A stretch of DNA of 53,336 nucleotides from an uncultured Arenicella sp. (GTDB lineage Bacteria > Pseudomonadota > Gammaproteobacteria > Arenicellales > Arenicellaceae): assembly GCA_937974565.1 (NCBI GenBank), contig CALJWL010000006.1, forward strand, positions 1 to 53,336, given 5' to 3'. How positions within the stretch are numbered: position 1 is the first letter of the stretch; each line of letters opens with the position of its first letter. The notes beneath the pieces were generated by a model that was not told the DNA's origin, did not search any database, and saw nothing but the letters and a program-made list of their open reading frames with translations. Shown here one piece after another: positions 1-27,803 of the stretch. Position numbers and translations under genes: made by a program.

Positions 1-3000
1 TTGTAACTCTCGCCCGATTCCGCTCGTTTGTTGCCCCACGCATCGTATTGATAGCGTGCTTGCACTTGGCCGTTTTCGTTGGTCAGCGTCACCACGCTTT
101 GCAAGGCGTCACACAGATAAAAACTGGTGGGTTCGTTTTGCGCGGCTAGGCTTAAGAGACGGTTGGCGCCGTAGTCAAACTTCGCTCTCGTTTCGTTGTT
201 AATGTCGTATTGTTGCAGCACGCTTTGATCGTCGTAGGTGCTTCTTTCCGTTCCCCTTTCGCCTACTTTTTCGATTCTTAAGCCTTGGTAGTCGTAGAGA
301 AATTGGCCCACCGTGCTGCCGCCTTGGGTGACTCGCCTTAAGTCGTCTCGTATGTCGAAGACGAAGCGGGTGGTTTGGCCTTGCTTGGTCTTTTGTATTT
401 GGTTGCCGTTTTGGTCGAAGGCGTAGCTGGCGTTGTTGCTGGCGTCTTGCTTGTCTTCAACTTCGGTCAGTTGGTTTCTTTGGTTGTAGGTGTAGGTTTT
501 GTTTTTGCTGATCGTGCCGCTGGCGATCTCGATGTCTTGTTCGCTGATTCGGTTGTACGCCGCGTCGTAGCTGTACGTCGTCTCTACTTCGGGGTACGTG
601 ACTTTGGTGAGCCGATCATTTTGGTCGTACTCATACGTGGTCGTTTCTGCCGACCCGCCGTTGGTTTCTTGTTGTTCGCTTCGGTTGCCGTTGTCGTCGT
701 ATTGGTATTCGTAGTTCGACACCGTGGCGTTGTTTTGTTGATTGTGGATTCTCGTTGTGCGTCTGGCCTGATCGTAGGTGTAGCTCGCTTGCGTGTTGTT
801 CGGGTAACGCACTTCGTTGATCAGGCTGCTGCGGTCGTACTCATATTGTGTGAGGCCTTGCGTGTTATTGACCGCGATCACGCGGTTTAAACCATCGTAG
901 TTGTAGGTCGTGATCAACCCATCGCTGTCGGTGAGGCTGGTGCGGTTGCCGTTCACATCGTATTGATAGCGCACCGTTTTTTGATGGCTGTCGGTGCGTA
1001 TGAACAGGCGGTCAAAGCTGTCGTAGCGGCGTTCGTCTGTGCGCACTTCGTTTGGCTTGTTCGTCACCGTGTAGGTTTCGGTTACCTTGGTTTGGTTGTT
1101 GTTGCCATCGTATTCATACGCTTCTTCGATTAAGTCTCGGCCCGTGGTTGCCCTTGGGTTTTGATACGTGGTTTTGATCAGCCGATTGAGCGCGTCGTAC
1201 GTGTGCGTTTGGGTTTGCCCATTCGCGTCTAATTCGCTAACAAGGTTGCTGTTTTGATCGTAGCTGTATTCGCATTGCGCTGGCGCTTGGCCCGTGGTTG
1301 TCGGGTAATGCATCACCGACTTGCGGTTAAGCGCGTCGTATTCGTAGCGCTTTTGGTTGCCGTTGGCGTCGGTGTGCCGCGTCAGGTTGTTTTGCCGGTC
1401 GTAGCCGTAGCTCGACTCTTGGTTGTCGGCGTCAATGATCTTGGTCAACCGGTTCAGTTGGTCGTACTCATAACGCCATTGGTTGCCTAAGGGGCGAGTC
1501 TTGCGCGTTTGGTTGTTGTTTAAATCATAAGCGTAGAATGTGGTTTCATTCTCGCCGTTGGTTTCACTGAGTTTTCTTCGGCGTTCGTCGTACGTGTAAC
1601 GCATCACTCGTCGCTCGGGGTCCAAATGTTCGCTAACATCCCCCATCGCGTCGTATTCGTAGCGGCTGATGGCCGTTTCCGGTCGGCTTTCCAGCACCAT
1701 TTCATGCCGGCCGTTGTATTCCATTGCCGTCACATTGCCGTTGGCGTCTTCAATGCCGATTAAGTTGCCTATGTCTGAGTAGGTGTTTTTGATGACAACG
1801 ATGCCGTCTCGCCGCTCTTCGATCACGCGGTCAACTTCATCATAGCGGGTGTCGGTCACAATGCCGCGCTTGTCGGTGGTGCTGATGAGGTTGTCGTTGG
1901 CATCATAACGGTTGGAAATCACCCGCGCGTGCGTGCCCGCTTGCGGTTCGCTGACCTGCGTCACACGGTTTAGCGCATCGTATTCATAGTCGGTAACGTG
2001 GCCGCGTTTGTCGTCAATGCTTAAGACGTTGTCCACCGCGTCGTATTCGGTTTGCACGCGTTCGCCGTTGGCGTCAATTTCATCGATTAAACGGTTTAGC
2101 CTGTCGTAGCCAAAGCGCGTGGTGTTGCCTTCGCCATCGGTGCGACTGATCGCATTGCCAAACACATCGTATTGCGTATTGAGGGTGCGGCCTTCGGGCG
2201 CCGACACTTGCGTGGCTTGGCTTACGTTGTCAAAGCGCGTGCGCGTGATGTGGCCTTTGCCATCAATCACGGTGATCGGGTTGCTGTCGGCGTCGTATTC
2301 GTATTGGCTGACTTGGCCTACGCTGTCTTTTTCATCCACCACGCGGTTTAGAAAATCAAATGCGCGCGTGATGACATTGCCATTAGGCCACGTTTCTTCA
2401 ATGGCGTTGCCCACCAGATCGTAACGGGTGAGGGTTTCAAAACCGCGTTGATCGCGCACCACCGTGCGACGATGCAGTTCATCGTAAGCGTATTCTACTC
2501 GATTGCCAGCGTGGTCTACCTCAACCAATCGATTGCCGTAATCGTCGTATTGATAAGTGTGGCGGTCATCGACTTTGTTGACCATGGAGATCATGCGGTT
2601 ACGGTCGTCGTATTCGTAGGTTTCGGCATGGCCTCGGCCGTCCACGTATCGCAACAAATTGGCGGTGCGGTCGTATTCCCACGTCATGCTGCGCTGGGCG
2701 TCACGGCCAACCGCGTCCGTTTGTTTAATTTTTAAATTGTTGGCGTCGTAGTCAATTTGAGTGATTCGGCCCAACTCGTCGGTTGTCTCAATGACGTTGC
2801 TGTTGCCATCGTATTTTAGGCGCGTAACGCCGCCTTCGGGGTCGGTGATCTGGGTTTGACGATACAAGTTATCGTATTCGTAACGCGTGCTTTGCCGTGC
2901 AGAGTCACGGCCTGTGATGGTTTGTTCTAGAACGTTTTGGGTGTTGTCGTACTGGTAATCGGCCGTTCGCCTTCGGCCTTGTTCGTTGGCTGGCCAAACG

Positions 3001-6000
3001 GTTTCGATTTTGCGGTTGGCGTCATCGTAGCGGTGTTCGGTTAGATTGCCGCGATAATCGCTCTCAATCAACACATTGTCGTTTGAGTCATACTCGTAGG
3101 TCATGGTGACCGCGTGAGTGGCGCTGTTGCTGCGGGTGTTGACCGTGGCCAGTGTATTGCGTTCAATTACGCGGTTATCAAAGTCGTACGTGTGTCGATA
3201 CGCTCGGCCTTGCTCGTCCACTTCCAGCACTTTGTTTTTGTTTTCATCATAGGCGTATTCACGCACCCCTCCTTCGGCGTTGGTGCGTTTGACTAAGCGG
3301 TTTAACCAGTCGTAATCAAACTCGGTTTTGTTGCCGTTTTCATCGACCTCTTGAGTGAGAAAACTGCGGTTGTCGTGGGTTTTTTTGACCTTGCCCACTG
3401 GGTAGTCAATGGCGTCAACGTTGCCTAAACTGTCGTATTCGTAGCGGGTGATTTTGCGGCGTTGATCGCGCATGCTCAACAAATCACCGTTGGCACGATA
3501 GGTGTAGGTAATGGCGCAAGAACCCGTGCAATCACGGGTGCTGGGCAGCACCTTAGAGCTTAGATTGCCGCGCCCGTCGTACGTATAGCGCGTGGTGTTA
3601 CCGCGGCGGTCGGTGTGGCTCTTCAACAAGTTACGAATATTCGCCGTGTCGGTTTCGTAAGTGGATCGGGTGGTAAACGTGCCGCCATTCGGGCCGGTTA
3701 CTTGCTCCGTCAAGCGGTTGCCAAACTCGTCATAGGTGTATTCACTTAGCACCCCGTTTTCGTCTTCGCTGCTCAGCATAACCGTGTCACGGTCGGCCCA
3801 CGTCATTTTCTGCGTGCCGGTGGGGCCACGAATTTCAAACGCACGGCCAAAGCGGTCCATCTCGTAGACGTATTCAACTTCGCGCGGGTCCGTCACCGTG
3901 GCGGTGGAGGGCGCGCGCTCGAATTCTTTGCCGGTGTAACGAATGCTGGCGGTGATGTCTTGCGGGTTGGTGGCATTGGTGTCTTTCTTGCTGGATTGGG
4001 TGACCAGCAAATCAGGCAACGCAAACTCAAGCTCAAAGTTTGTGCCTTGCACTGAAAATTCATTACGCGTGATGCCTTGGTATTCGTATTCGGTTTCTAT
4101 GCCGCGTGGGTCAATCAGCTTCTCAATCGACGTGGCCACTTGCACATCGTACATCAGGCCTCGGCGGCTTTGCTCGCCGTCAAAAAGCCGGCCGTATTCG
4201 TACGATTCTTGAATGATTTCTTCGTTAACCTTTAAACTATCGTAGTCAGTGGACACCGGAACATTCTGACCATCAATGTTTCTAACCGTGACCAAACGCC
4301 CAAATTTATCGTATTCGTAATCAAAGCGGTAACCCATGCCTTCCACCGAGGTAATCACTTCTCGAGGGTAAGGGTAGATAAGGCTCCAACTGCCAATCTC
4401 TTCAGTAACCAGACCACGGCCGCCCTCAAATATCTCTTCAAATTCCGTACGGATAATCTCATTCGCTATCGTGGTGATTGGCGTGTAGGTGAAATTAATA
4501 CTGCGGCTGGATGAGTCGACAATCGATTTGATTTGAGGATAGGCTGTTTCGTTGTTGTTGTATTCAATGCGAGTGACATTGCCATTGGTGTCTTCGATGT
4601 AGTCTAAATAATATTTAGGCCGTGAGAGTGCGGCTCTGACGTTTTCATTAAACACGCTGGCGTAGCGATATAAGGTGCCATCTTTGGCGTAAAAGTTCCA
4701 ACCCTCTTCTTCGAACTCTAATGTGCTGTGATAACCCATGCCCGGCGTGTAATCACCGTTGCCCGCGGGAAAAAAGGTCACGCCGCCCGCCACGCCGCCA
4801 CTGACCGTAACCCAACCACAACTGTTTTGGCTGACAAACGAGTCGTAGTTGTGCCCCCAACCGGGGCCAAAATTAGACACACTGGTGTTAGCGCTGGAAT
4901 ACGAACGCGTAAACTCAATGCTTGGGCCACGCCCCGGCAAAGATACGTCATTACGACTTAAGAATAAGTTACCACGATACAAGTTAATATCGCTGTAAAC
5001 CGGTGACCCCACGGGCAAGGGGCTGAGGGACTGAATGCTTAGGCTAATGGAGGAGGATTCTCGCTCTACATTACCGTCCTCAACACTGCGAGCCACCACA
5101 TCAAACGTGGTTCTTCCACGATGGTAAAACGCTTTATCAAAGCCTATGTCTTTACTGTCAAACACATGAACACCGGCACTTAGAAAACGGTCGTTCAGAA
5201 ATGTTTCGGCGTTTCTCGCAATCGTGGGCCGAGTTTGAATGGTGACTCTTGCGTCTTGTAATAACGTAAACTGTATCTTCGGTTCATCAATCACGCACGT
5301 GGCCGCGTTCACGTCATCTGTGACCAGCGAACCTGAATCTACGCTAAGGTTTTGAATGACCGGCGCAATCAGATTAACATCGACCCGATCTGACCTAACT
5401 TCGTCAATGCTAGACCCGTAATTTAAAATTATTTCGGCTTCGTATTTCTTACTCGGGTCAAACCTTCGAGGCTGCAAAGTCACTTGCCGACCATTGGCAA
5501 GCTCTACCGCAAAAAGAGAACCGTTTTCGTATAACGCAAGATTTATAAAAAATGGTTTATAACTGGTGGGTGAAAACTCGATGTCATAGGGCACAAATTC
5601 ATCGGCCTCTAAGTTTTTATTAAGTTTCACCTCTAGAGGGGCCAACTCAGGAAAGTTTATAGACGTTAATATGCTTCCAAATGGAGCAGACAACTCCTCT
5701 TCCATAACGCCGCCACTATCAGGCCTTCTTATCTTCCAAAAAACTTCCCCGGTGAATTGCCCTACCAAATTACTGCCTCTGATATTGGTATAGCGCACTT
5801 CCTCCAAACCAGTAAACGTACGTTCGGCTCTCGCTCCGAGAAAAGACACATCAATATCTTCAACATCTATCCCGGCTATGGGGCCTCGTTTGGATAACTC
5901 ATCGACATCAAGAATGGCAACATAAGTACCTCTGTAGTACTCACCTGCCCGAACTGCCGCACGCCGACTTGCCAAACTCAATAAAAATGGCGGCCTGTTA

Positions 6001-9000
6001 ACAATGGTTTGAAAATCAACTACTAAATTTGGGCACCCATCACATGACAAATCGACTGGGTTAACACCGCCCAAATCGTATGCCTGTGCGCCACTTTGTC
6101 CTTGCGGCTCAACTCTGACTCGCCCACCTAAAATCCTTGGGTAGACATGACCTTTCACATCAGACTGCAATTCAATAGCATCAGTAGCACAACTAGGGTC
6201 AATGACGGTAAAAGAACATCTATTGTTGTAAATCTGGTGAGAAGTTAAGACAATAGTAGCAGGGTCGACGCCACTTGGGACATCACGAGGGCGCGGTTCC
6301 CCCACAGAGGCTAGCACCTTAACGCCAGCCACAGGATTATCAAACTCATCGGTAACACGAACTTCCCAGTTTTCCGTTACCTCCTCGTATTTAAAGAATA
6401 CACTAGGCGGCCTGGTACTGATGAGCTTCGCTGGAGGCCCCGCCGTCGTTAACAACGTAAACATAGCATCGCTGTCTAAATCAGAACGCACAACGCGTAT
6501 AGCAGAGACAGCGATAAAGCTAGTGCCCACTTGTTGCGACTGGCTATTACCTTCAATTGCAACAAAATTGTTTATCGGGTTATCTTCAATTTTTTCTGGT
6601 GAACGATAAACCGCTTCAGCCATGCCTTGAAAATTGGTTAAAACACGCACTGAAGAACCCACGCTTTCATCATCAACAATAAACTCGCCGGCACCAGAGG
6701 ACACTCTAAATTCAACCTCGCCCCCACTGATTGGCGCGCCTTTAACATCCACGACTTTCACCTTAAGTGGCTTGAATTCTTTACCCGCTGCAGAACGTTG
6801 CAAATTAGAGGACGCAAAAAGTAATATTCGTGCGGCACTGCTTGGGTCTGTATTCGGTTGCTGCCCCCGAGGACTGCGCAGCAAACCACTCAACCGATCA
6901 TCCAGCGGCGCCGCCGTCGCACCACCCGCCAAGCCTCTGCTGATAAAGTAGCCCGAAGAATGACTGATGGGGTCGTTCACAATCCACGCCGACCCACGCC
7001 AGTCAATGTAACGGATCTCAGTCTGTGGTATGCGAACCGAGTAATTTAGTTCCAACCATTGTCGAACATCGTTTCTAACACTGGCCGCATGTTCAGACAA
7101 CGCGGTGTCCAGATTCGGTAAATCGCTGTTCGACAATTCCAACACCGCAACGCCGCTTTCAGCGGCCAAGGCCATGGCTTTGTCAGCCGATACGCTGTCT
7201 AGGTCAAATTGCCGTTCAAAAACTTGATGCTCCAAGTAAGAACCTTGAAGTGACGTTAACGCAGCAAACTCAGCGTGTTCGCCAGCATTAGCGGTGCGTG
7301 CAACCGACTCTGAAACGGCCGTTGCCACGTCGATATTAATACCGCGGGGGTCAAACTCAAACGGCTGATCAAACAGGCCAGTGACCTCAACATCGCTGCC
7401 CACAAACACCAAGTTTGGTATCGGCTGAATCTTGTTTCGTTGGGTCACATTGGCAATCAGCTGTTCGTCTTGGTGCCATGCATTAATGTAGCGTTGGTTT
7501 AACTCACTGAGCAACGCGCCAAGTGGGCGGGTATTCGCGTTTTCTTGCTCGGTGGATTTCTCTAAACCGTACAACCCAAAGCCAAATGAGTGATAACTGC
7601 CTGAAAACACACTTTTGTCGATGCTTGTGTTTGCCGTTGGTGTCACAATGTCCACGGCCACTTTGTGTTTTACTCCAGCGTTTAAGGTAGTTGAGCCTAC
7701 TTTAAGGGTCTCACCGTTCGCTTGAATGGTGGGCCGCAGGTTAACCAAATACAACGGCGTGCTATCAAGCCCCCCAAGGCTTAAAACCAAGTTATGGTCC
7801 TCACGGCTGCCGGCCTGATAGTTGAGTGCCAAATCTTTGCCATACAGCGTGTGCAAAGGCACTTCATGATCCAGCGCCAAATCGTTGCCTTGTGTGGTTT
7901 CATACACCTTAAAGCGCACTGAATGCAGCAGGTCTTCGGGGGGCGTGTCGCCTTCATAAGTCACGGCCACCACGTCAACAGGAAGGCTGTTGGGCAAATA
8001 GCCGGCTCGATTCTCAACCACCTTCGCGCTTGAAAGCAGCTCATTAATGCTGATGGGCTCAGTGCTGCCATCGGCGTTAGCACCTTCACTTAACAACGGC
8101 TCTATTTGATCCAATAGGCCCGCCACCACGCCCAACGATTGTGAGTTTGACAACAGGTCTGTGCGAACAAGGTCAAGGTTCAGATTTAAGCTATCCGTCT
8201 GAGTCAACTCAACGGATTTGATGGCCGGCATTAACGGCAACCACGCTTCACCGCTGCTATCAACGGTGGCGCCTCGGTAGTTTGAATAAGGCACCCGAAC
8301 CGCCAGCCAAGTGTGAGCTATTTCGGCCTCGGAAAGGCGGCCGTCCACCACTTTTGGAACGTGCGGTATGCCGGCTTTTTGTAAGGCTAATATCGCTTCT
8401 CGCGCATCGCTGGTGCTGGTGTAATCGAGTAACTGTTGATTGTTTAACCGGATCACGCCACGCAAGTACTTAACGGGTAGGCCACTGGCGGATAACAGTT
8501 GATGCAATAAATGCGCTTGATCTGTGCTGCTGCCTCCGCGTTGATTAAGCGTGCCGTCAGCGCCTTTGGCCAAACCGTAGTAAAGCTCGTTTTCAACGTC
8601 GTTTTGCACAAACTCAAACAACTTAATCGGGTCATAACCCAAGTCTTCGGCCAACTTGGCAACGCCAAACCCCACGTTACTGGCGTCACGGTCACCCAAA
8701 TTTATTAACGAAGCGTCCGCGCGCTCATACACCGGCACAACCACGGGCTGATACGTTGGCGTTTGACTGGCTAAGTTCAGTGACTGAATCGGCAGGTCGT
8801 TGCGCCGTAAAATAGCCGGTTGTTGTTGCGTGATGTTTTGCCGCACTTGGGCCACTTGCTGGCGCAGTTCGTCTATGTGCAAACCTCGTCGCAACTCAGA
8901 AACATTCTCATCATCGGAACTGTTCAGCGCAAGGTTCAGCGCCGCCAAGAAAGGCTTAGCGGCTTTTTCATAATCTGACTTTGCGGCGACTAACTTGGGT

Positions 9001-9978: not shown

Positions 9979-9980
9979 CG

Positions 9981-18900: not shown

Positions 18901-21900
18901 AATTCACCAACTCGTTGTTCGTAAATACCATAACGTGAGTAGTTAAAACCGGACCGGTTAACTCTTTCAGTTCGATTTTTTATCCCATTTGCATCATACA
19001 AACCATGATTACAACCAACTTCATTGCAACCAACCGATATTTCCTCACCGACTTCCTTAGTCTCGATGGTAGCTCGATACGCTTCTGCTTGCTCTTGAGT
19101 AACCGTGTCATCAATGCCGACAAACCGGACTTTACTGTGCGAGAGTATCTTTTCGTTACTTTCATAGGTAACTCTTGAATACAGATCTGGCCCATCAGAC
19201 TCGATCTGACTGATGATCTCGACACCCGGAGAGGCGCCAATTCGCTGAGCGTCAGTTTCACGGATAGAATAGTACTCGTCAGCACAAATTCTGTCATTTT
19301 GTGCTGGATAGCTAATATTCAAAGTAGGCGGCACCTTTACTATCGGCAAGTAAATGGGCTTGATATTAGTGGTGCCATCGTCCAATGTTAGTTGTGCAAG
19401 TAACTCGGTTTTCCCAACAGGGAATAAGGTGGTGTCAATTTCAAATTCATATCGTGTGCCAAATTCAGGAAGATTAACCGCGTGCAATACGCGCCCCATT
19501 CGAAACACTTTAGGGTAGGTGCCTTGCTCTTGGTCTGTTCTTTCAGGCACCCCCAACTGCAAGGTCAGTGGTGTAGGGAAGTTATCCCGCCTAAATAAAG
19601 ATTTATCAATTGGCTGCATTGCTACAGTCACTTTATTTGACGGAACGGCTTCGCATTGCTGCGTATAAACGGGGTCAACGTCTACCGTAATATCGGTACA
19701 AGAACCTTTATATGTAATTGATTCAACGTCTATAAATCCACCAAACCGGGTCACAATAACAGCATTCAACGTATAGTCAGTGCCACAGTTATCGATCAGG
19801 TTAATGGGTTGCTCTCCAGGCTGAAGCTCCCTATTGTTAATGCTCACAGATACAATACCTGGTTGTGAGGAACTGGGCTTAAGTCGATCACTTTCTATAG
19901 TGCGAATGTGTCTCCCCTGCAATTGTTTTGATACTAGGTCGGGAGACTCTGTTTCAATAGTATCTCCGTCAGACGTAACACGGTCATCATTAAGAAATCT
20001 AACATCAGCTTCAGGCCCACTGGACTTAATAGACAAAATAACTCTCTGTATATCTGACGCAGACTCGTCTGATGTAAAGTAAATCGCATCAAACTCTGGC
20101 AAAAAACGCCCTCGGATCGCTCCACGGGATACAGTACTGTCAACAGGAATAATATTAATCCCACCAGTATCAACATACCCTCCTGCTACCATATGACTTC
20201 GAATGAAGAACACATGGTCTATAAATTGGTAATCTGGCAAAGTGGATAAGTCAATTTTCACCCTTCTAGAGTTTTCACCAACCTCTCTTTGTTTTGCACC
20301 AGCAACCACTGTTTCACCGATATCACTTACCTCAATAGTGACACTTCTCTGATTAGAAACGTCCTCACCATCCTGCAGGGGGCGATAAAATAACTCGTAG
20401 AAAGCCACTCTCTCTTTAATAGAGTGCGCAAAATTAAGCTCTAACTCATTAACTCCTTTTTGTATGAAAATGTCTCGAGTCACCTTTTGTTCTAAAAGCC
20501 CAGAATATTCTGGGCTACTGTTGTAATCAAACGGCACCCTTCCCAACATGAATTGACTGTTGTGGGTAAAGTGCGCTCTATTTATTTTATTTGATCCCAC
20601 GTTAGAAATGGTTTTATTTCCCGACCTATCAGCCACCACGGCCCTAAAATCGAACAGACTAAATGCCTCTGTACTTGTCCTCGCTTCTCTCAGGCGATTA
20701 ATCGAGTAAGACAGAGTTTGTTCGCCCGGATTACTAAAAGAAAAAGCTTCTGTAATAACGTTCCAAGTACTTTCAGAAGGCTTTTTAAATTCAAGGCGTG
20801 CATATTCAACTTGACTTTCATCAATTTTAAGCTCTAAAAATGGATTGATACCAAGCAAACACCCCTCAATGGGTGGGGTGGGCAATGGCGCGCGTTCGCA
20901 AGCTTCTTGATCGACGCCTAAGAACAGTTTCGAATTTAATATCGGCTGAAATATAGGCTTGCTGATGTCTTGCACCACAGGGAATCGAGTATCGATATCA
21001 ATAAAAAACTCAAAACCTTGAATCACAATTTTATAAATTCCATCCGGCACTCGGCTGCCACGGGAATCTAAACCATTCCAAACTATAGACCCTTCAGTTC
21101 CAATAAGTTCAAATGTCTCACGAAAGCTACGAACTAAAACCCCGTCGGCACTGAAAATATCAGCGGCAATATTAACTTGGTTTAGAACCTTGAAGTTAAT
21201 AGCCGTGGTGTCTTTTATGTCATCCCCATTTGGAGAAAACGAAGGTTCTGAGATAAACACACCTGAAATGGAGGATTGGTCCGAATTGATGACTCTTCTA
21301 ATTTCTTCGCGCTTATTGCCAGCCTTATCGAACACCGTTAAACGAACAAAGAAACTGCCTATGTAAGGCGGCACCCACGTGGTAAAAACAGAGTCAATAA
21401 CTTGGGCACTGGAGGGCGGAGCAATCAGGGTCCATGCATCGCGCATAGAAGTGTCGCGATAATGCAGTTCATAGCGATCAAAATTTTTATCAATGGCCGA
21501 CCCTTCTAGCCTGAACCCTCGGTCATCAGTGCCACGTAAGACTCTGAGATCTGAGGTCAAGTTCAACAGAGACTGAAATTGACGGTAGCCTCTCGTTTCA
21601 TCAAACACGCCGCACTTATCACTAACATCGTTACTGTAAAATGATAGAAATTTGGTGAATGGTGTGGGGGAGACCCCGGTAATGTCATTCGATGATGCTT
21701 CGAACGTTCGTTCAGAAAACAGGAATAGAGCGGAACTTGCGGGCTGGCTGGCGTTCACAGTCATCGGCACAAAAGGAGACAAACGATCAGGGTTTTGCAG
21801 CGGAGAAATAATGTCGACCCCACTCACGTCTGCCATCGCAGGGTTGATGAGTAACTCTCGCCCTCCGTTTAACCAAAATAGCGTGTCTGGCCCTTCTGTT

Positions 21901-24900
21901 GATTGGTAGCTGTATCTATCAATATAATAATCGTTGACTAACAATGGGCGACGGTGTTGAACGAACGGCAAGCCTTGATTGAGGGGCACATCGTTGGCAT
22001 TTCGAAGAAAATCGTCAGGAGCGCTGTTGGTGAAATTTTGCTGATCAACTGGGACACTGATCTGGGCGTTATCAATGCTGAACACTCGGTCTGCGGCATT
22101 GGAAACATACAGTGTGTCTGCGCGCTTAAATGCGACCACTTTGCTCGCATCACCATTTCTTAGGTCAGCAACATAAACCCCATCCACATTCGCGTGGTTA
22201 ACGACGTTAGATTCGGAAAGCGTGATTTGGTTACAAAGCGGATCACGAGGGGATAAAAATTCCGTGCCACAATAATTTTGATACGCCGCAAAGCTGAGAA
22301 AATCTTCCACAATAAAGGCGAATTCGGAGGCATCAGGGTTCCATGTTATTTCGGTAACGGAGCCTAATAAACGTTCTGTCAATTCACCGTTGGCAACAAA
22401 CAACGATTCAGCAAATGACCGCAGTTCTTCATTATTAATCAGTGCCTGAGTCCATTGAATTCGAGCAACGTCTATCGTCTGAATAATCGACAGGCTTGCG
22501 TTAACGACATTGATGACGCCCTCTTCAGGGATTGCCACGGCCAGTAGATCGCCATTCGGGCTCCATGCAAATGCGGTCGCCTTGCGAGAGGCAACCGTGT
22601 GCGTGCCGTTCTGAATGTCGACAACAATCAACTCGCCGCTCGGCGGGTTCATTAGGAAATCTTGAACGCCTGAATAATTGTTATCTTGCTCGTATACCGA
22701 CGTAGACTGTTCCTGCACCCAAGCTGTGAAATGCGTGCCTTGGCTATTAACTTCTATGCCGGTAATTTCTTTGTCTGCCCCCAGTATTGCAGCGTCAAAG
22801 ACAACACGCGGTGTTGCACTATCAGAGTCTTGGGTAATCCAAACTTGCTGGGTTGTGTTGCCTTCTTCGCAACAAGCTCTGTCGTTATACCAAAACAAGA
22901 CACGATTGTTTGGTAAGGGGATGGGTTTAGAAACCCCAACCGACGGCGGCAGCGAGCCTTGTGGGGAGGTGATGTCGCTGCCGTCGGTTGACATAAACAG
23001 GAAACGAGAGCTGAATTCACCCGAAGCGAAGCCAGAAATGCGTGTCAGCAGCCTGTCTCCACTTAACGAGGCTGTTAAATAATCAATTGAAAAATTTTGG
23101 CTGCTGTCGGGGTTTAAACCTTCCTGTGATAACAACTGAGTTACCGAACCGCCATCGCTCTCTGCCCGATATAGCCCGGTTGGAAATGGGTGCAGTGCGT
23201 CGGTATCCACTTCTTCCCCATTTGCATTAATAAATGGCCTAAAAAAGGTAGTGAAGTAGATAAAACGATTATCCGGGCTGTAAATAAGGCTGTCTGCACC
23301 CGGTGTGTGTAATTCGTTTACTTCGCCAATGCGACACGTCAGGTTGCGTTCTATGCCAAAGACAGTTCCGAATGCCTCTGATATCGGGGAGCGGTTAACA
23401 TCAACCACCACATTTCGCTGGCCGGTGTAAATTCCAGGGCCACGCTTTACCGCAATGGTATAGGCTCCGTCTGATACGTTGCCACCAAAGCGGTTTTTGC
23501 CGTCCCAAGTGACTCTGTCACTGTGGATGGCGGTGTCGAATTCGAATTCAAATACTTCGTTGCCCAAATCATTGATGACCACGACGCTGTCATTGCTTGG
23601 CTCGGGCAGATTAAAGGTGTAATCCACGGTGTCTTGAACACCGTCGCTGTCGGGTGAAATAAAGAAGTCTGACAGAAAGAAGTTGCCGCCTTGAACTTCA
23701 ACTTCTTTCGCCAAATCATTGTTTGACTCGCTCAACTCGCGAATCGCATTAGCGGCATCAACCACCACGTATATGGAAAACGCACCCGGTTCTTCAAAGG
23801 CGTAATCGAAGGTCCACTCGGCTTGCCCTGAACTGGCAATGTCCAAGGTGGATTCAGCAATCAGTGGCCCAGTATTATCGTTGCCAAGGTAAGCTTGTAT
23901 GACCACTCCCTCAGCGGATTGCATGCCATGATTGCTCACCACAACCACTTGCTCGGTGGCATTGCCAACACTGGGGAATTGAGGAGTGATGATTAAGCTT
24001 TCAGACGACACCGCGAAATCAGGCAGGCTGATAGACTGATATTCCAAAAAGGCTTGATTATCTTGTTCATCAAATTCCACGACTTGATCTTGGTGATCAA
24101 CAACCACATAAATAAACTGCGCGCCTTGATAGTCCACCTCTGGCCAAACAGCGACCACCTCTGCCGCGGCTGAGGCCGGTATGCTTTGAACTGTCTCTTC
24201 GGTGATTAAGTGACCGCCAGCATCGGGGGCACCTTGATAAAAAGCAACACTCAGGTTGGTTACCGGCTCAGTTCCCGTGTTGCGGACCGTTGCTTTTAAA
24301 GTACTGCCCATTCCCTGAAAGCCCGTCTCGGGCAAGATGGAGAATTCTTGAAAATCAACTGAGACGTTTTTGCCCGCTTGGCGCTGAGATTCAAATGCCT
24401 TAGACGCCGAGTTATTTGACTCATCGGCCTCAGCAACCGAATTTACCGAGTCAACCTCTACTCTCAGTGTCGATGTGCCTTCGATATTAACTGGCCAGCC
24501 GCCAACCACCCTCGCCGTTTTCCCAGGCTCGATGTTTAAGCGCGTTGTAAGAACATCAAACTCACCTTCAACGTTCGTTACAAAAACACGTACGGGCACG
24601 TCATTCGCCGCCAATGTTCCTGTGTTTCGAATCACGGCACCCAACTCAACCAATTCATTTAATAAAGGCTGAGCGGTTGGCAAAATTAAATCATCCGTTG
24701 CAACGGACACATCAACACTCGACTCACTGCCAACCACCAACGAAGCTGAGTTATTGTCTTCATTTTCTTCAGCAAACCGATTTTGTGGATCCACAACGAA
24801 GAAAAACGACTGATCCGCTGGGTTGGTTTTATCAAACTCAAACGTAAGCTGTTCTACGGATTTTGCCAACAGTGAAACGGTTTTCGATTCAAGCAGTTCC

Positions 24901-27284
24901 CCATTAGAGGGTTCCTTGTTCCATAACTCAACCGTTACATCATTCGCTTGCGATGCACCAATGTTATGTATAACAGCGCTAAGGCTGAGTGTCGTGGGTA
25001 ACGTGGTTACTTGCGTTGGTGTCGACCTTAACTCAGAGCGATTAATCAACAACTCGACGCCTTGAGGGGCTTCTAAAACATTAACTTGCGCCGAGGCGCT
25101 ATTATCGCCTTCTGAGCGTTCGCCTACTTCAAATAGCGTATCCGCAACTGCGTTAAGCTCAACGGTGCCCTGAGAACCTAAACTGTTCCAGTAGAAGGCC
25201 ACTTCAAGTTGCCGAAAAGGGGCTATTGGGGGAAGGCGAATTTCGTCAACTAAATCACCAGCATTAGGGGCCCCTTCATACAGAGACAGCACACTCGCTT
25301 GCGCTGGTTTGGCCCCGTTGTTTTCCAACGTCGCCAACACTTTAATGATCTCACCGTCTCTAATCTCATTTTTCTCAACGGCAACCGACGACACGACGAT
25401 GTTTGGTAACCGGCTAACACGCAAGACCTCTAATACTTGTGCCGTGGTAGAAACACTGCCACCCCAGTCGCCCGCGGTGCTTTGCTGGCTTAGTATGTAA
25501 TCGAGCGCCAAATCAACATCAATCTTATCTGTTTGGCGAAACCTAATGAACACGCCAATGGCATCCGTTGTCTCGCGAGTGGTGCTGCCTGCGTCACCAA
25601 AACCGCTGTCATTGTTAATTTGTGAGGCCAACCAATCAATGGTTGATTGAACCGGTTCAGATGAAATACCGGCACATGCCAATGAATTTAACACCCTTGA
25701 CGTTAATGTTACTGAGGGCTGTTGAGATTGATTAACAGACCAAGCCCCGTTTGAGTTTCGCCTGCTGAGTACATAGGCAATGCCTTGCTGTATTTCATTC
25801 TCAAAGCCGGATGAGTTTACCGTTGCCATTGCACAGATTGCCAACGACGTATCCAGCACGCTGCTTTCTAAAGAGGCCTGCAAGCCCCAGCCTCCGTCAT
25901 CATTTTGCAATTGAACCAACCGGTCTAACTCGCTGGCATCACCCATGACTTGCGCTCTTCTAGAGATAGAATCGGTGTTTGCGGGTTCTTGCGCGGCCAA
26001 CCAGTTTCTGGCTTTGTCCACTTGTTCATCCGCGGTTCCAAGTTCTTCAAGCAGGCCTATTATCAAAGACGTGTCTCGAATACTCGTTGCACTCTTATCG
26101 CTCCACGAACCATCACTGTTTTGCTGGCTTAACACCCAATCCATGGCTTTCTCTGACGCTTGATCTTGTTGACCGACCTCACCATTCGGCCCCAACACTG
26201 GCTGCCCTGAGATGGGAGTAGAAACCAACTTAATTGGGTCGACGTTGGCAATGGCTCTGCCACTGGTTAAAATCGAAAATCGCGTTGCAAACTCCTTTTT
26301 CAGCTCATTTAACTCAGCGTAAGTACGTTCGGTAATTCGTCTTTGTGATGAAAGGTATAAAAACGCAAACTTAAATTCTTTCTGTGAGTCTGAAAAACTG
26401 GGCGTTCTCTCACCCTGAGCCTCGATCAAATCATCAATGCTATAATCTTTGCGTGTGCCATTAACAACCGCACCCTTTACTGGTAAATCAGAAAGTTCAT
26501 AGTCGTTGGTACCATTGGGTCGGATCACATAAAACGGGTCGACCTCTGTTTTGTCGATCAGCCCCATTAAATACAAATCAAGCTGGCTGTACTTTTCTTG
26601 AACAGCAACGGCGGTGAAAGTGCCATCACCGTTATCACGCCAGCGGCTTCCATATTGAACAGAGGCATCGGTGTTCAAATAAAAGTTCCAATGACTGTCG
26701 TCTCGACCTTTCAGCTCCTCAATAGCGGGAAACGCAGCCCATTGGTGCAACAGTTCATGTGCGAGTACATTCAGCCCTACTTCGTAGCTTTCTTGATCGT
26801 CCAATGGGTTGATGACTAACGAGTTGGTTTGATACCGGCTCAGCGCGGCCATATCAATAAACCCTTTTAATTTGCCCTCACTGCCGTAAAGCTCGGTATT
26901 ATCTAACTCGGCCACCCCAATGCCGGTGACACTGTTAGACACAGCATGATGAAAGGCTCTGGCTTCACCTGTGTCAATTTCAAAATCGGTAAAAACAACT
27001 AAAAAGTCATAAATATCGGGGTTGTTCTTATAAAACTCTTTCGCTACCGCTTGTCGCGCCTTGATATTAAATTCGCCATCAGCGCCAGTACGGTTGTAAT
27101 CTCCCAAAAAATTTATAAATGAGACATTATTGACTTGCTCGATGAATTCCACGGAAAACAAGCCGCTGTCATCGGCGCCGGTGTTTGCATAAACAGGGGA
27201 AGTCAGCAATACGCTCGAAAGAAGTAAAGCGAATTGAAAGCGCACTGCCAATTTAATATTGATTATTTTGAATATTTGAGACAT
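9981..27284 (-). CDS. 5767-residue exported multidomain mosaic protein
   Basis: ATG 27284 follows an AGGTGG Shine-Dalgarno about 10 nt upstream. Approximate order: signal peptide 1-33; zinc-metallopeptidase-like domain with H176-E-L-L-H180, then DSHWNFYLNTDAS and LDLYLMGL blocks; terpenoid-cyclase/prenyltransferase-like alpha repeats 385-625 (QQNSDGSW, NDDGGWG); five CARDB-like domains 630-1205; FlgD-Ig-like modules with SPNGDG-type starts near 1211, 2013, 2902 and 3115; a TolB/WD40-like propeller about 1310-1870; Ig-like and FN3 modules 3200-4550; a second propeller-like stretch 4560-4880; more CARDB about 4936-5370; Ig-like 5378-5480; a cadherin-like module (VLENDTL) about 5555-5640; and a unique C-terminus ending in a hydrophobic stretch and LLLGDD. 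No sorting motif or autotransporter barrel is seen. Its place between a GspC-like gene and two exported proteins suggests type II-linked secretion or surface display. Substrate and function are unknown; peptidase activity is inferred from the motif alone. Confidence 0.95.
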   Translation of the reverse strand: MSQIFKIINIKLAVRFQFALLLSSVLLTSPVYANTGADDSGLFSVEFIEQVNNVSFINFLGDYNRTGADGEFNIKARQAVAKEFYKNNPDIYDFLVVFTDFEIDTGEARAFHHAVSNSVTGIGVAELDNTELYGSEGKLKGFIDMAALSRYQTNSLVINPLDDQESYEVGLNVLAHELLHQWAAFPAIEELKGRDDSHWNFYLNTDASVQYGSRWRDNGDGTFTAVAVQEKYSQLDLYLMGLIDKTEVDPFYVIRPNGTNDYELSDLPVKGAVVNGTRKDYSIDDLIEAQGERTPSFSDSQKEFKFAFLYLSSQRRITERTYAELNELKKEFATRFSILTSGRAIANVDPIKLVSTPISGQPVLGPNGEVGQQDQASEKAMDWVLSQQNSDGSWSDKSATSIRDTSLIIGLLEELGTADEQVDKARNWLAAQEPANTDSISRRAQVMGDASELDRLVQLQNDDGGWGLQASLESSVLDTSLAICAMATVNSSGFENEIQQGIAYVLSRRNSNGAWSVNQSQQPSVTLTSRVLNSLACAGISSEPVQSTIDWLASQINNDSGFGDAGSTTRETTDAIGVFIRFRQTDKIDVDLALDYILSQQSTAGDWGGSVSTTAQVLEVLRVSRLPNIVVSSVAVEKNEIRDGEIIKVLATLENNGAKPAQASVLSLYEGAPNAGDLVDEIRLPPIAPFRQLEVAFYWNSLGSQGTVELNAVADTLFEVGERSEGDNSASAQVNVLEAPQGVELLINRSELRSTPTQVTTLPTTLSLSAVIHNIGASQANDVTVELWNKEPSNGELLESKTVSLLAKSVEQLTFEFDKTNPADQSFFFVVDPQNRFAEENEDNNSASLVVGSESSVDVSVATDDLILPTAQPLLNELVELGAVIRNTGTLAANDVPVRVFVTNVEGEFDVLTTRLNIEPGKTARVVGGWPVNIEGTSTLRVEVDSVNSVAEADESNNSASKAFESQRQAGKNVSVDFQEFSILPETGFQGMGSTLKATVRNTGTEPVTNLSVAFYQGAPDAGGHLITEETVQSIPASAAAEVVAVWPEVDYQGAQFIYVVVDHQDQVVEFDEQDNQAFLEYQSISLPDFAVSSESLIITPQFPSVGNATEQVVVVSNHGMQSAEGVVIQAYLGNDNTGPLIAESTLDIASSGQAEWTFDYAFEEPGAFSIYVVVDAANAIRELSESNNDLAKEVEVQGGNFFLSDFFISPDSDGVQDTVDYTFNLPEPSNDSVVVINDLGNEVFEFEFDTAIHSDRVTWDGKNRFGGNVSDGAYTIAVKRGPGIYTGQRNVVVDVNRSPISEAFGTVFGIERNLTCRIGEVNELHTPGADSLIYSPDNRFIYFTTFFRPFINANGEEVDTDALHPFPTGLYRAESDGGSVTQLLSQEGLNPDSSQNFSIDYLTASLSGDRLLTRISGFASGEFSSRFLFMSTDGSDITSPQGSLPPSVGVSKPIPLPNNRVLFWYNDRACCEEGNTTQQVWITQDSDSATPRVVFDAAILGADKEITGIEVNSQGTHFTAWVQEQSTSVYEQDNNYSGVQDFLMNPPSGELIVVDIQNGTHTVASRKATAFAWSPNGDLLAVAIPEEGVINVVNASLSIIQTIDVARIQWTQALINNEELRSFAESLFVANGELTERLLGSVTEITWNPDASEFAFIVEDFLSFAAYQNYCGTEFLSPRDPLCNQITLSESNVVNHANVDGVYVADLRNGDASKVVAFKRADTLYVSNAADRVFSIDNAQISVPVDQQNFTNSAPDDFLRNANDVPLNQGLPFVQHRRPLLVNDYYIDRYSYQSTEGPDTLFWLNGGRELLINPAMADVSGVDIISPLQNPDRLSPFVPMTVNASQPASSALFLFSERTFEASSNDITGVSPTPFTKFLSFYSNDVSDKCGVFDETRGYRQFQSLLNLTSDLRVLRGTDDRGFRLEGSAIDKNFDRYELHYRDTSMRDAWTLIAPPSSAQVIDSVFTTWVPPYIGSFFVRLTVFDKAGNKREEIRRVINSDQSSISGVFISEPSFSPNGDDIKDTTAINFKVLNQVNIAADIFSADGVLVRSFRETFELIGTEGSIVWNGLDSRGSRVPDGIYKIVIQGFEFFIDIDTRFPVVQDISKPIFQPILNSKLFLGVDQEACERAPLPTPPIEGCLLGINPFLELKIDESQVEYARLEFKKPSESTWNVITEAFSFSNPGEQTLSYSINRLREARTSTEAFSLFDFRAVVADRSGNKTISNVGSNKINRAHFTHNSQFMLGRVPFDYNSSPEYSGLLEQKVTRDIFIQKGVNELELNFAHSIKERVAFYELFYRPLQDGEDVSNQRSVTIEVSDIGETVVAGAKQREVGENSRRVKIDLSTLPDYQFIDHVFFIRSHMVAGGYVDTGGINIIPVDSTVSRGAIRGRFLPEFDAIYFTSDESASDIQRVILSIKSSGPEADVRFLNDDRVTSDGDTIETESPDLVSKQLQGRHIRTIESDRLKPSSSQPGIVSVSINNRELQPGEQPINLIDNCGTDYTLNAVIVTRFGGFIDVESITYKGSCTDITVDVDPVYTQQCEAVPSNKVTVAMQPIDKSLFRRDNFPTPLTLQLGVPERTDQEQGTYPKVFRMGRVLHAVNLPEFGTRYEFEIDTTLFPVGKTELLAQLTLDDGTTNIKPIYLPIVKVPPTLNISYPAQNDRICADEYYSIRETDAQRIGASPGVEIISQIESDGPDLYSRVTYESNEKILSHSKVRFVGIDDTVTQEQAEAYRATIETKEVGEEISVGCNEVGCNHGLYDANGIKNRTERVNRSGFNYSRYGIYEQRVGELGSEYIQVLGSNSPPQLFRERDDARVIPSLVTHDYLGYRVRSSGIQVVAPFSESGSISLLSEARNWSGASVCSTTQFYVDAELEDFRVVSSGGIIVETPDIDGIERAFSPNGDGKFDELVYDITVGEAARVDMDVFEVTEESQAMTNPVSVSSPVQGQNIDIATTAISWDGTGQDGRVLADGVYKVVITVTDGCGHQEEFVDYAHIDNTPPDVRIDYPTGSQSLPILIRVLGEISDQVGASYELVAQDEQGVSVALSSGAAPVLGPIGDWNTLGLTGNWTLILNAKDALENSLRVEQQIELPVRQDLIASLETEDYYVSPNQDGRLDTLSIRVGLLRDANIDVLIKNQADELIRTLVSNQLQSDPYSTLVWDGKNEMGQVPPDGLYTVELTASNPTNQQVESIQFELDNTLPTINVLQLSDSVIELAGESEVNGLIQDANFKDLKVVLEPLLVNGEIIGSNMVVLEESQQPKDGLITTIPSFLLDSERAFTARFVANDHAGNRAQLSAELYLDILPPRLQILSPANDSIYNANAQLEVSASVQDRFLRDYRLRIVLAADGTEEILVAVDDESSDDIAEMVELAALQEGAYFVELSATDRSGLAAITTVAFVVDNTPPEVAINVPGQNEYLTELSSINGVANDSNFEQYELKIASGNDVNSAVFNDLTVSNQPVNGGSLYTLSTLPADGPYLLELSASDKAGNSSRTTRNFIVDTTPPTPVELVSAEFEKATSNIELEWAASTADDFAGYNLFRNGIQVNGDIITTTKFTDLDLAESEYTYYVQVVDRAGLISEPSNELKVTVDLTPPTVRISSPQNEGRVNLVQSVIGTAHSGDDFKIYRLFLIDANDNRRLIRESSVPVVGDELAQLNTLDFSNEARLTLLLEAEDIHDNKASDSIDIVVDNEPPQAPVLSPAQVNASNPADALLRWQHTDTAGDRLGFLLYRGEALLGVDGPVIGDLRPFAIQDLEYTDLELVDGTHRWVVYAIDDLGNTSEPSNVVELTLDNQPPTATIVNIENGHEFDNELYLLAGSQDLDIDHVQFEYMDENSSGTVGTWVEIGTVSSAPFEVIWDTDGLEYGPYQVRVVATDLGGKSDPAPAPLAVIKKDVEPPAQVKNLEISTNGPQGTLIWSDNDEPDLVGYHVYRANCEECEYRRLNTAPLSDSSYIDNASVVSGLGQRLRYLVRAIDASDNESVDSDTVIGVYVRTSFSIDERVVNTAVAQGRVAVGTAANGIEKVEFNVNTAQVPNVSVTQALSPAEDNVSSDIPLNGLGINGITALASSDSERFIGEVSKLIKVIAQGEPSVPENVQGAFADASAQVDISWSSNPAQEQISGYQVFKNGELLQASALISEVTPFSTHGVNIANSAPLAPESAFWDVNTTARNVVQFGQTWDDPSLVSKVELLWQTSSRAARTVIFEVLIDGEYVELGDHRKFFQDRLVSVELSKPVLTTGFRFTAREWESTFRTARLEKMSVFAETLQLGTTYSEVADPIPHDQVRYQVRAVDQYGGVGALSPAIEVAVGDVTPPQALVLSLIEQGSNKQLVWTESSEPNSTYRLYADGAEVVTQATTTYALPRLPNGIYTFTVVAIDPQGNISDPSNDVAVQINEPLLPAPIDLQAAYSELDNDINLSWQFNGDAADVVHYTVYVSRGDAQPFEKVDETQNRLYDFTQITQELRYHFYVTATDLSGNESPSSNTVTVTIPQVAFAGPPVITLPFDASGTVTANTNLQSILGFAEPGSNVTLFDGNLQQRMFTQANQVAALSEPLFDGTTGYNLIYEVAGRSVLVRLDFETGDTGFYRLSDEGQFERIVAAGLSEISFEISNAVLTSPNTLLIEMFDGSYKTLNVLTNVLSDVSLPSLSLGPIVQVLAFNEADQFMVVEIETDAFTGEFGVYRLDLQNPAQPVPQPLVSPAEIVSVDGAIYSLHPQSDTFVSLTRDDLGAQVIRVTDLLTGSQSQQSVNRSEVIFAVNDWSPSGRQLLLLSDDGAALNFEVLNVQTFEFTKLPLGLNISSAFWVSDRFVVSTQFVDIDSPQRLGLIDIQTGVHQDIGELPVLMQEPANPFNPFGALYFAEGWAERGRSLLISNDSDQTFEYQLAGLFVFSDVELEQGINNFSALSVSTDQAISELSNEVRVFYDGVSAELPDLQVALNVNRPAVLLGDTATVELTVSNVTATDSAPSVLTLLQTAPDGSTLEFMRKEVGTLEANSSVTLDAPFFPQVLGTHALFARIDADNGVEEVDETNNSTIAAIDVLASLDPRLSINLQAPATGGFSYPSGAQVAGTVALFNPGRAVTGVWNIEVVDAQNHLVDVIDTINVNNLALGDTIEQAFAWNSHDIFPGDYHVRSRFQPVNVSHLIMQSSPFSLYEDIVLQSALASNKLTFTDNEQVTLTATLGNKSSAVSLSEADVLLEVRDNQGALVFQETATLVNLIAGAQAQLPFFWNTGVAPAGEYFATVSTMQEDTVLGRADTRFLIQASNTVLGTLNLSSDRLTALDTLEYDSEVMNSGNASAGPVDVVYELVSGASVQELGTERLGTLDPSTARLLSDELVLAAYDEGTFLLRLVAELGPDNTRRVLDEKAFSVQEVTPPMLTIVEPSQGGVVTSAGLIARLTAQDDSGVKTVEYRVNNGPWLLANLSVLNTGFYEVDLSHLTEGSQFLQARATDNRDNVSGIESLSFEIDNTPPEISVLNIQEGQTFEGAVAPMVSVRDANPDRSTIWVDGVVLNGPITELGTHRIVIEAIDKANNSNRMERTFEIDRLATVSANDDRLLLRRGVWGTVRVLENDTLESINDGVVSITKQPDHGSLVRVGNGVYNYFPSLRFVGHDSFAYDVASEATGLSSSAMVSVDVAPSASCSLVADHSADAGDVVNLVGWANNQTDNRSVPRYRVEILGTSNNNAFAAGGLPTISYPSCDLRYTPKATARGRITVEYRIVDQATNGRNYTSQTRTFTLQINGTVGGQVIVPILNLLLGDD

Positions 27285-27374
27285 TTAAAAATTTCCACCT
27301 GAACGAGTCACTTCAAAGAGGGTGAAACCCATGCACATTTGCTCGACATAAATCGTGAGCAATGGTGTGACTGT

Positions 27375-27803
27375 TTAGTTTGAGGAGTAGGCCTGAACGT
27401 CTTCTACGTGGCCTTTGCTTAACAGGCTAAAGTTGCGTTTTTGCGCTTCATCAAGATACACCATGATTAATTCACCGCCGGCGAGATTACGCAACAAAAC
27501 CGCCTGTGCAGACACCTTTGAAACCTGCATGCTTCCAGAAAAGAGTAAATCTCCTTCTCGCACTATCGCCATATCTTGGCTTTTTTGCTTTATCACCGCC
27601 GTTCGATCATTCGGTGATGTAGCAATCACGGTCAACTCATCCAATACTGAGACTGACGGTTCTGCGTTTGTTAAATTAGAGTGAACCCCAATATCAACCA
27701 CAGCTAACTCATCAGCGACTTGTGATGCTTCAATGCCAATAAAATAAAACACGCCTGCTAACAGCAACGCGCATCCAACTAATCCAACCCAAATAGTTTT
27801 CAT
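27375..27803 (-). CDS. GspC/PulC-like inner-membrane protein (HR domain, no PDZ)
   Basis: 142 residues: a short cytoplasmic start, one membrane segment (about 4-23), then a periplasmic domain. Residues 58-117 (NDRTAVIKQKSQDMAIVREG, then VSKVSAQAVLLRN and ELIMVYL) match the homology region of GspC/PulC, the type II secretion inner-membrane subunit that contacts the GspD secretin. It is about half a normal GspC and lacks the C-terminal PDZ or coiled-coil part. No other gsp gene is in the window. It is the first gene of the giant operon, 90 nt upstream of the 5767-residue gene, with AAAGG about 9 nt before its ATG. This suggests an adaptor that couples the giants to the secretin, which is inference. 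A pilus-assembly PilP-like protein is the main alternative. Confidence 0.7.
   Translation of the reverse strand: MKTIWVGLVGCALLLAGVFYFIGIEASQVADELAVVDIGVHSNLTNAEPSVSVLDELTVIATSPNDRTAVIKQKSQDMAIVREGDLLFSGSMQVSKVSAQAVLLRNLAGGELIMVYLDEAQKRNFSLLSKGHVEDVQAYSSN

What the first reader, a model, noticed from the sequence alone, without database searches (positions are those of the whole stretch)
1..27803. Four-gene operon of two giant exported proteins with a GspC-like protein and a small coupled partner
Seen: four minus-strand genes with short gaps (90, 2 and 67 nt): a half-length GspC/PulC-like protein, a 5767-residue mosaic protein, a 162-residue six-Cys exported protein and an RHS protein over 3140 residues long. 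Known: RHS proteins form shells, often around toxins, and GspC links the type II machinery to its secretin. Inferred: a dedicated secretion adaptor for two giant cargo proteins, possibly forming a surface or predatory/adhesive complex. I do not know a described system with this set.
Basis: partly seen in the sequence, partly recalled or inferred. Interest (0 to 1): 0.82.

Follow-up and report, generated by a model that had tools for sequence, protein, structure and literature searches.

The report
Giant toxin operon with secretin-docking protein
A marine bacterium carries an operon for a giant surface protein, a very large toxin-shell protein, a small exported partner and a short version of a secretion-machine docking protein, suggesting a dedicated export adaptor for a giant bacterial weapon.

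Summary
In detail: four minus-strand genes at the stated coordinates and gaps. The window is a whole contig of an Arenicella-type gammaproteobacterium; the RHS gene runs off its start. (1) The 142-aa protein is a membrane helix plus a domain predicted to fold like GspC-HR/PilP (best PDB match GspC HR, Z 8.7), without GspC's C-terminal domain; the genome has a separate GspC, a GspD with N0 domain, and PilP/PilQ. (2) The 5767-aa giant has a HExxH peptidase-like head, a squalene-cyclase-like toroid, many CARDB/FlgD/Big/fn3 modules and a conserved C-terminal module. (3) The 162-aa protein is a genus-level, all-beta exported protein. (4) The RHS protein has an inactive transglutaminase-like head: a described polymorphic-toxin class (Zhang 2012). 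Giant–small–transglutaminase order occurs in 5 of 18 genus genomes, the HR gene in 3 of 18. A class-level relative has an HR-like ORF, a homologous giant of about 5847 aa and an inactive-transglutaminase RHS gene in the same order. Pairs of toroid protein and inactive-transglutaminase protein are broader still. Best reading: a two-part giant RHS toxin complex with its own secretin-docking adaptor. T2SS dependence is inferred, not shown.

The parts
27375..27803 (-). HR-domain protein P0001 (142 aa): N-terminal membrane helix (res. 3-23), linker, GspC-HR/PilP-like domain (res. about 51-118), no PDZ or coiled-coil C-terminal domain
   Evidence: divergent counterparts (22-24% identity) at the same place in G009 and G007, HR-like ORF in G472
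9981..27284 (-). giant modular protein P0002 (5767 aa), exported by eye
26250..27164 (-). giant res. about 41-345: peptidase-like head with HExxH (HELLH, res. 176-180, window 26745-26759)
   Evidence: motif kept in G009, G007 and G472; phmmer only weakly to aminopeptidase N around the motif (E 0.25)
25416..26150 (-). giant res. about 379-623: squalene-hopene-cyclase/TED-like alpha/alpha-toroid domain
   Evidence: Pfam PF13249 E 6e-9, PF13243 E 1e-7, PF07678 E 6e-6
23715..25367 (-). giant: array of CARDB domains (5 stretches in res. 1-1200); span approximate
   Evidence: PF07705 E 2e-50
9984..10622 (-). giant C-terminal module (res. 5555-5767), Big_9/cadherin-like plus a Cys-containing end; 45-51% identical to those of the four other Arenicella giants
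   Evidence: not detected in G472
9490..9978 (-). small protein P0003 (162 aa, six Cys, leader ending PVVSAIALPAHA; predicted all-beta core res. 43-158), start 2 nt after the giant's stop
   Evidence: no Pfam or NCBIfam family
3..9422 (-). RHS protein P0004 (>3140 aa, cut by contig start): leader by eye, inactive transglutaminase-like domain (8163-8651), Big_1 (6678-6800), DUF6531 (4830-4988), YD/RHS repeats (3-4829)
   Evidence: continuation probably at the right end of contig C47 (exact 27-nt match)

Best explanation
The operon encodes a very large two-part surface or secreted weapon with its own secretin-docking adaptor. The RHS gene is a polymorphic toxin of the inactive-transglutaminase class: leader, pseudo-transglutaminase head, Ig-like domain, YD-repeat shell, and probably an RHS core with an exchangeable C-terminal tip followed by a small putative immunity gene. 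The giant is the co-exported partner: a peptidase-like head and a toroid domain, then a long rod of CARDB, propeller, FlgD, Big and fn3 modules, ending in a conserved C-terminal module. Inferred: the giant forms the stalk or anchor on which the RHS particle sits, joined through its C-terminal module, the small Cys-rich beta protein (in Arenicella) and the pseudo-transglutaminase head. The short HR-domain protein, anchored in the inner membrane, docks on a secretin N0 domain (most likely GspD) and brings this oversized substrate to the channel, acting like GspC without its C-terminal domain. Shown: gene order and recurrence, domain make-up, loss of the transglutaminase Cys, HR fold by prediction. 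Inferred: co-transcription, complex formation, T2SS route, toxin activity.
For: HR fold: AlphaFold domain 57-117, ten-residue block means 74-88 from residue 61 on, six strands; top PDB matches by VIA are GspC HR 3oss_C (Z 8.7, 64 of 65 residues, 2.3 A), type IV pilus/PilP chains (8.1-6.5), GspB (6.5) and PulC HR (6.0) (Foldseek best E 7e-3, none below 1e-3); the GspC HR is described as a six-strand beta-sandwich (PMC3169554, passages). Recurrence: HR genes were found by looking directly upstream of the giants in G009 and G007; a profile of the three (which matches them by construction) finds no other strong match in 109 order genomes. The giants of G009 and G007 keep HExxH (in G007 the motif is on another contig than the HR gene). 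Giant–small–transglutaminase order in 5 of 18 genus genomes, giant-small junction 2 nt, 0 nt or overlapping in all 5. Distant support: G472 has an HR-like ORF, a giant of about 5847 aa (30% over 1289 aa, E 7e-171), a 4-nt overlap, and a pseudo-transglutaminase/RHS gene; its HR-like stretch outscored 57 of 60 shuffles against the Arenicella profile, own GspC 59 of 60, and five negatives lay inside their nulls. Own genome has GspC, GspD with N0 domain, GspE and GspF. RHS class: inactive transglutaminase + RHS polymorphic toxins (PMC3482391 section 19). Partner pair: in 10 of 11 loci where the upstream partner was scanned it has a toroid-type hit (SQHop models above the curated cut-off in 4, TED in one more).
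Against: No experiment links giant or RHS protein to the T2SS. GspC (Z 8.7) and PilP-type (8.1) matches are tied, and model confidence is modest (mean pLDDT 61.9, three sequences). Sequence profiles barely link the short protein to GspC (hhalign Prob 0.2 of 100, E 0.28; A3 against PDB sequences no hit up to E 10; A5 one hit, GspC, E 1.3). In one search own PilP, a true HR-fold relative, did not stand out (50 of 60 shuffles at or above it), so that test has little power, and A3 at E 0.01 did not find the G472 ORF (1.1 bits). G012 has giant–small–transglutaminase without an HR gene and without RHS; G044 and G032 lack HR, small and RHS genes. In G007 and G009 the genes lie on three and two contigs. 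The giant's C-terminal module is not detected in G472. Of 10 genomes whose sequence could be read behind the shared block, only G009 carries the operon there. A terminator-like site lies on the minus strand at 9516-9501, before the RHS gene (3 found in the stretch, 1.6 expected), so co-transcription of the RHS gene is open. The C47 tip matches no toxin family.
Confidence: 0.45

Rival explanations
1. The giant and the RHS protein form a Sec-exported surface toxin system that does not use the T2SS; the short HR protein serves the type IV pilus secretin (PilQ) or helps secretin assembly like GspB, and sits in the operon for another reason.
For: PilP-type chains match the model as well as GspC within the tie range, GspB somewhat less; PilP/PilQ are present; G012, G044 and G032 have giant plus transglutaminase genes without an HR gene.
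Against: Best match is GspC HR; the shuffle test favours own GspC over own PilP (1 of 60 against 50 of 60 shuffles at or above the score), though its power is low; the gene sits directly upstream of the giant in each of the four genomes where it was seen.
Confidence: 0.25
2. A general adhesin or matrix system: giant plus pseudo-transglutaminase protein build a surface structure for attachment or polymer binding; the RHS part is a shell-like extension and not primarily a weapon.
For: The pair of large upstream protein + pseudo-transglutaminase protein without RHS is common (G012, G044, G032, G277, G461, G251; G372's head gene is cut by its contig end); the giant is rich in CARDB/fn3/Big modules.
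Against: RHS core and a variable C-terminal tip followed by a small ORF fit a polymorphic toxin; orphan tips elsewhere in the genome; class described as toxins.
Confidence: 0.2
3. Chance neighbours: a lone HR-like gene, a giant and an RHS gene that happen to be adjacent.
For: Assembly breaks in G007 and G009 mean that full linkage of all four is seen only in the window; G012 lacks the HR gene.
Against: Same partners in three genus genomes and, minus the small gene, on one contig in a distant genome; giant-to-next-gene junctions of 2 nt, 0 nt or overlapping in the five Arenicella loci and G472.
Confidence: 0.05

Closest known systems
RHS polymorphic toxins with N-terminal inactive transglutaminase domain (Zhang et al. 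2012, PMC3482391; section 19 and passages seen)
   Same: Leader, transglutaminase-like domain lacking a catalytic residue, Ig-like domain, RHS repeats; listed there under the 'T2SS/Sec-dependent' default route.
   Different: The Table 1 passage seen gives no signature neighbour genes for this route; here a giant partner and, in some genomes, an HR-domain gene and a small exported protein are neighbours.
GspC/PulC of the type II secretion system
   Same: Membrane helix plus six-strand HR domain (predicted); nearest solved fold 3oss_C.
   Different: Lacks the C-terminal PDZ or coiled-coil domain; not in a T2SS cluster; encoded with the putative cargo; similarity below family cut-offs.
GspB/OutB and PilP
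   Same: Membrane-anchored periplasmic HR-type domain that binds a secretin N0 domain (PMC9239104, abstract and section 17, for GspB; PMC3169554 passages for PilP).
   Different: No gspA, pilotin or pil gene recognised among the neighbours scanned.
Tc toxins, CDI and teneurins (recalled, not tested)
   Same: YD-repeat shells or giant stalks presenting a C-terminal toxin or tip.
   Different: No SpvB/TcaC or CdiB-type partner seen; rod and shell are two proteins.

Membership tests
RHS polymorphic toxin, inactive-transglutaminase class | transglutaminase-like domain after the leader, with catalytic residue(s) lost | tested here: met
   PF01841 E 5e-4, 20.8 bits, just under the cut-off of 23; expected Cys absent in 8 of 8 aligned sequences (which column holds the Cys is recalled)
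RHS polymorphic toxin, inactive-transglutaminase class | array of RHS/YD repeats | tested here: met
   PF05593 E 1e-115, 22 stretches
RHS polymorphic toxin, inactive-transglutaminase class | RHS core followed by a variable C-terminal toxin and an immunity gene | tested here: inconclusive
   probable continuation on C47 with RHS core, 368-codon frame and a small ORF behind; no toxin or immunity family hit; linkage rests on a 27-nt contig-end match
GspC | inner-membrane helix plus HR domain | tested here: met
   by predicted structure and PDB comparison only
GspC | C-terminal PDZ or coiled-coil domain | tested here: not met
   protein ends about 24 residues after the HR domain, low-confidence stretch
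GspC | score above the curated family cut-off | tested here: not met
   14 bits against 27
GspC | binds GspD N0 | not testable with these tools
   N0-bearing GspD exists in the genome
PilP | encoded with the pilus genes next to PilQ | tested here: not met
   own PilP and PilQ are side by side on C54; P0001 lies beside the giant
PilP | lipoprotein | not tested
   an LVGC at residues 8-11 is there by eye but the hydrophobic stretch runs on; no lipoprotein predictor was run
GspB | encoded with gspA or a pilotin gene | tested here: inconclusive
   no such neighbour among the 11 flanking window genes scanned (5, 6); not every window ORF was scanned

The most novel reading that the evidence does not exclude
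A cargo-linked branch of type II secretion: an HR-only adaptor, encoded with its cargo, docks on the secretin and exports a two-protein toxin assembly of about 9,000 residues (peptidase-headed stalk plus RHS toxin shell), a delivery mode for RHS toxins that uses neither T6SS nor a two-partner porin.
Probability: 0.3. Interest if true: 0.85.

Novelty: new variant of a known kind. Interest (0 to 1): 0.62.

Why it matters
RHS toxins with a signal peptide have been assigned to Sec/T2SS as the default route, with no signature neighbour genes named in the survey passage seen. A docking gene and a giant partner that travel with them would give a concrete, testable answer to how such huge toxins leave the cell and how they are presented, and would show that secretin-docking domains can go with cargo genes.

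Tried and rejected
BLAST with the HR protein in 60 relatives found nothing credible (best non-self E 0.065); looking upstream of the giants and a three-sequence profile were needed. Direct profile comparison with own GspC was uninformative. The genome-contig scan with the giant's C-terminal module (123 relatives, best 80 kept) gave four strong matches (E 2e-48 or better), three Arenicella contigs and one 'Gammaproteobacteria bacterium' contig, all belonging to genomes already found; the next best had E 7e-12 and looked like cadherin/Big repeats. Among the loci of that scan the small-protein profile hit those four contigs only and the HR profile none (E<0.5; the A1 part of that output was cut). 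Fold search of the small protein found no clear relative (Foldseek none below E 1e-3; best Z 7.0); families not listed there are not excluded. Plasmid search with the giant's head: 1 record of 72,556, a Granulicella hypothetical protein, 26% over 34% of the query, not followed. PADLOC: no hits for the four proteins given. Tc-toxin and CDI readings were set aside because no such partner was seen; no dedicated search was made. Papers: searches returned 0; searches (447 papers, 10 listed; 16, 12 listed; 24, 10 listed; 12, 10 listed) showed no description of this gene set in the titles and abstract starts listed; 2 of 10 paper searches were not used, and bioRxiv is not held. Results against my reading are in the Against line. 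Left out: of the 25 non-self genomes with an A4 match I fetched loci for 20 (not G109, G140, G209, G313, G424). Of the upstream partners in those loci I scanned 7 genomes' with Pfam (G127, G461, G251, G372, G277, G434; G472); with the window, G012, G044 and G032 that makes the 11 counted; G127 is the miss. The giants of G009, G007 and G001 were not scanned. In one search 11 of the 12 other genus genomes were read (not G005), and G010's contig ended at the block. In one search rows were chosen by hand from loci already found; segment boundaries were set by me.

Full report
OBSERVATION. The window is the complete contig C6 of a 3.37-Mb, 97.9%-complete assembly. The closest named records for the giant's C-terminal module are three Arenicella MAG contigs and one 'Gammaproteobacteria bacterium' contig, whose lengths equal those of contigs of same-genus genomes G012, G001, G009 and G007; I therefore take the window to be of an Arenicella-type gammaproteobacterium.

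THE SHORT PROTEIN. Pfam and NCBIfam give only sub-threshold GspC hits. The AlphaFold model (mean pLDDT 61.9) has a membrane helix (res. 3-23) and a six-strand domain (res. 57-117; block means 74-88 from residue 61 on). Its ten best solved matches are T2SS, type IV pilus or Dot/Icm chains: GspC HR (3oss_C, Z 8.7, 2.3 A over 64 of 65 residues), type IV pilus/PilP chains (8.1-6.5), a Dot/Icm component (7.0), GspB (6.5) and PulC HR (6.0); a Tudor domain (5.8) and LspC (5.7) follow. GspC and the best PilP-type match are tied. GspC proteins normally carry a second linker and a PDZ or coiled-coil domain after HR (PMC3169554, passages); this protein stops. The genome has a separate 229-aa GspC, a GspD with N0 domain, GspE and GspF, and PilP/PilQ.

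THE GIANT. Pfam finds a squalene-cyclase/TED-like toroid domain, five CARDB stretches in the first 1200 residues, FlgD_ig, Big_13, fn3, a further CARDB and Big_9/cadherin domains. Residues 176-182 read HELLHQW; G009 and G007 have HETLHQW and G472 HEVLHRW. That this is a zinc peptidase is inference. The last 213 residues are 45-51% identical to those of the four other Arenicella giants, including the 2948-aa giant of G012, which otherwise aligns with the window giant only weakly, over 99 toroid residues (E 8e-5).

THE SMALL PROTEIN. It matches no family, is predicted all-beta (core block means 85-97) and has no clear fold relative. Homologues at E<1e-10 occur in 9 of 61 genomes searched, all of the genus, own included (the G014 one lacks leader and Cys pairs); 20 of 61 at E<=0.01, the additional ones mostly over the leader alone. 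In the class sample the E<1e-60 matches were own, G015 and G004, 3 of 369. Lone copies in G004, G015 and G017 have unrelated neighbours. So it is a genus-level accessory, not the heart of the system.

THE RHS PROTEIN. It has an N-terminal transglutaminase-like domain, Big_1, DUF6531 and 22 RHS-repeat stretches. The expected catalytic Cys is absent in 8 of 8 aligned heads. This is the class described by Zhang et al. 2012 (PMC3482391 section 19, read): inactive transglutaminase after the signal, then RHS repeats; the Table 1 passage lists this domain under the T2SS/Sec route with no signature neighbour genes. The window's first 27 nt equal the right end of contig C47, whose frame there continues with an RHS core and a variable tail, followed by a 138-codon frame. 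The tail has a H-G-T-D motif that recalls ADP-ribosyltransferase-like toxins (my reading); no family supports it.

RECURRENCE. Giant–small–transglutaminase order: G000, G001, G007, G009 and G012, 5 of 18 genus genomes. HR gene directly upstream of the giant: G000, G007 and G009. A profile made from these three matches them by construction and finds no other strong match in 109 order genomes; three further genomes have partial matches at E 0.001-0.03. In G007 and G009 the set is spread over three and two contigs, so full linkage there is inferred. In G012 the locus is intact and the HR gene is absent; for G001 the giant's start was not recovered. In the order relatives G044 and G032 a giant is followed after 18-24 nt by a transglutaminase-only gene.

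BEYOND THE ORDER. A profile of the head (A4) matched 26 of 369 class genomes, own included; I fetched loci for 20 of the other 25. G472 shows a 121-aa HR-like ORF with a leader, then a giant of about 5847 aa (length from coordinates) homologous over the first 1300 residues (30%, E 7e-171) with broadly the same domain order, overlapping by 4 nt a pseudo-transglutaminase RHS gene that again runs off its contig. Neither the small gene nor the giant's C-terminal module was detected there. The HR assignment rests on position, pattern and a shuffle test (3 of 60 shuffles reach its score; own GspC 1 of 60; own PilP 50 of 60; five negatives 24-57 of 60); the A3 profile itself scores it at 1.1 bits. 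The upstream partner of the head gene has a toroid-type hit in 10 of 11 loci scanned, SQHop models above the curated cut-off in four (window, G032, G372, G277) and TED in G461; G127 is the miss. So the wider unit is a gene pair, toroid-bearing surface protein plus pseudo-transglutaminase protein, to which RHS toxin, HR adaptor and small protein are added in some lineages. Other RHS-type loci (G308, G416, G227, G179) have instead a 235-285-aa protein upstream, which looks coiled by eye; in G417, G172 and G236 no large same-strand partner is directly upstream.

SITE. The window and G009 share the waaA–hemF–yrdC block (79%, 80% and 59% identity). Eleven other genus genomes carry the conserved block; in 10 of them the sequence behind it could be read, and only G009 has the operon there. 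In the window itself a part of the block is missing and a DUF885 gene lies between. This is a variable site next to conserved genes.

MECHANISM AND LIMITS. I commit to a two-part giant RHS toxin complex with a secretin-docking adaptor (0.45). Sequence, order, domain make-up and predicted HR fold are shown; the T2SS route, complex formation, co-transcription and toxin action are inferred. No terminator-like site was found between HR gene and giant, but one lies before the RHS gene. The PilQ/GspB-like reading (0.25) and an adhesin reading (0.2) remain open. Known literature covers the RHS class and the HR domain; I found no description of the combination in searches. The second check of this report changed several facts in wording and counts; none required a change of odds.

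Noticed in passing
L157:946-1983 (-) = C13; L156:1303-1947 (+) = C15; L159:454-1758 (-) = C25: Orphan RHS-core tips in the same genome with leader-like starts; the first two share a near-identical front (YIHTDPDGTPFAATDEEGNLEW) but different tails, and small ORFs follow the C13 and C25 ones: possible mini polymorphic toxins exported without a shell.
   Followed up: partly
window 9874-9978 and other loci (e.g. L047, L052, L044): A leader of the form RR..L..G....W.KPVV..I.LPAHA.TS is shared by many otherwise different small ORFs in Arenicella and its order; perhaps a Tat-like or sorting leader.
   Followed up: no
window 34702-39106 (-): Four tandem DUF547 paralogues; the syntenic G009 block has two.
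   Followed up: partly
L056:478-3296 (+), G012: The intact G012 giant locus without an HR gene has instead two genes upstream that look, by eye, imelysin-like and di-haem peroxidase-like.
   Followed up: no
L066:1-3730 (-), G009: The G009 giant is split into frames of 255 and 952+ codons; assembly error or real break, not resolved.
   Followed up: no
RHS gene ends in C6 (window), G009:C61, G472:C9: RHS genes run off contig ends in all three of these assemblies, as expected if RHS cores are repeated in the genome.
   Followed up: partly
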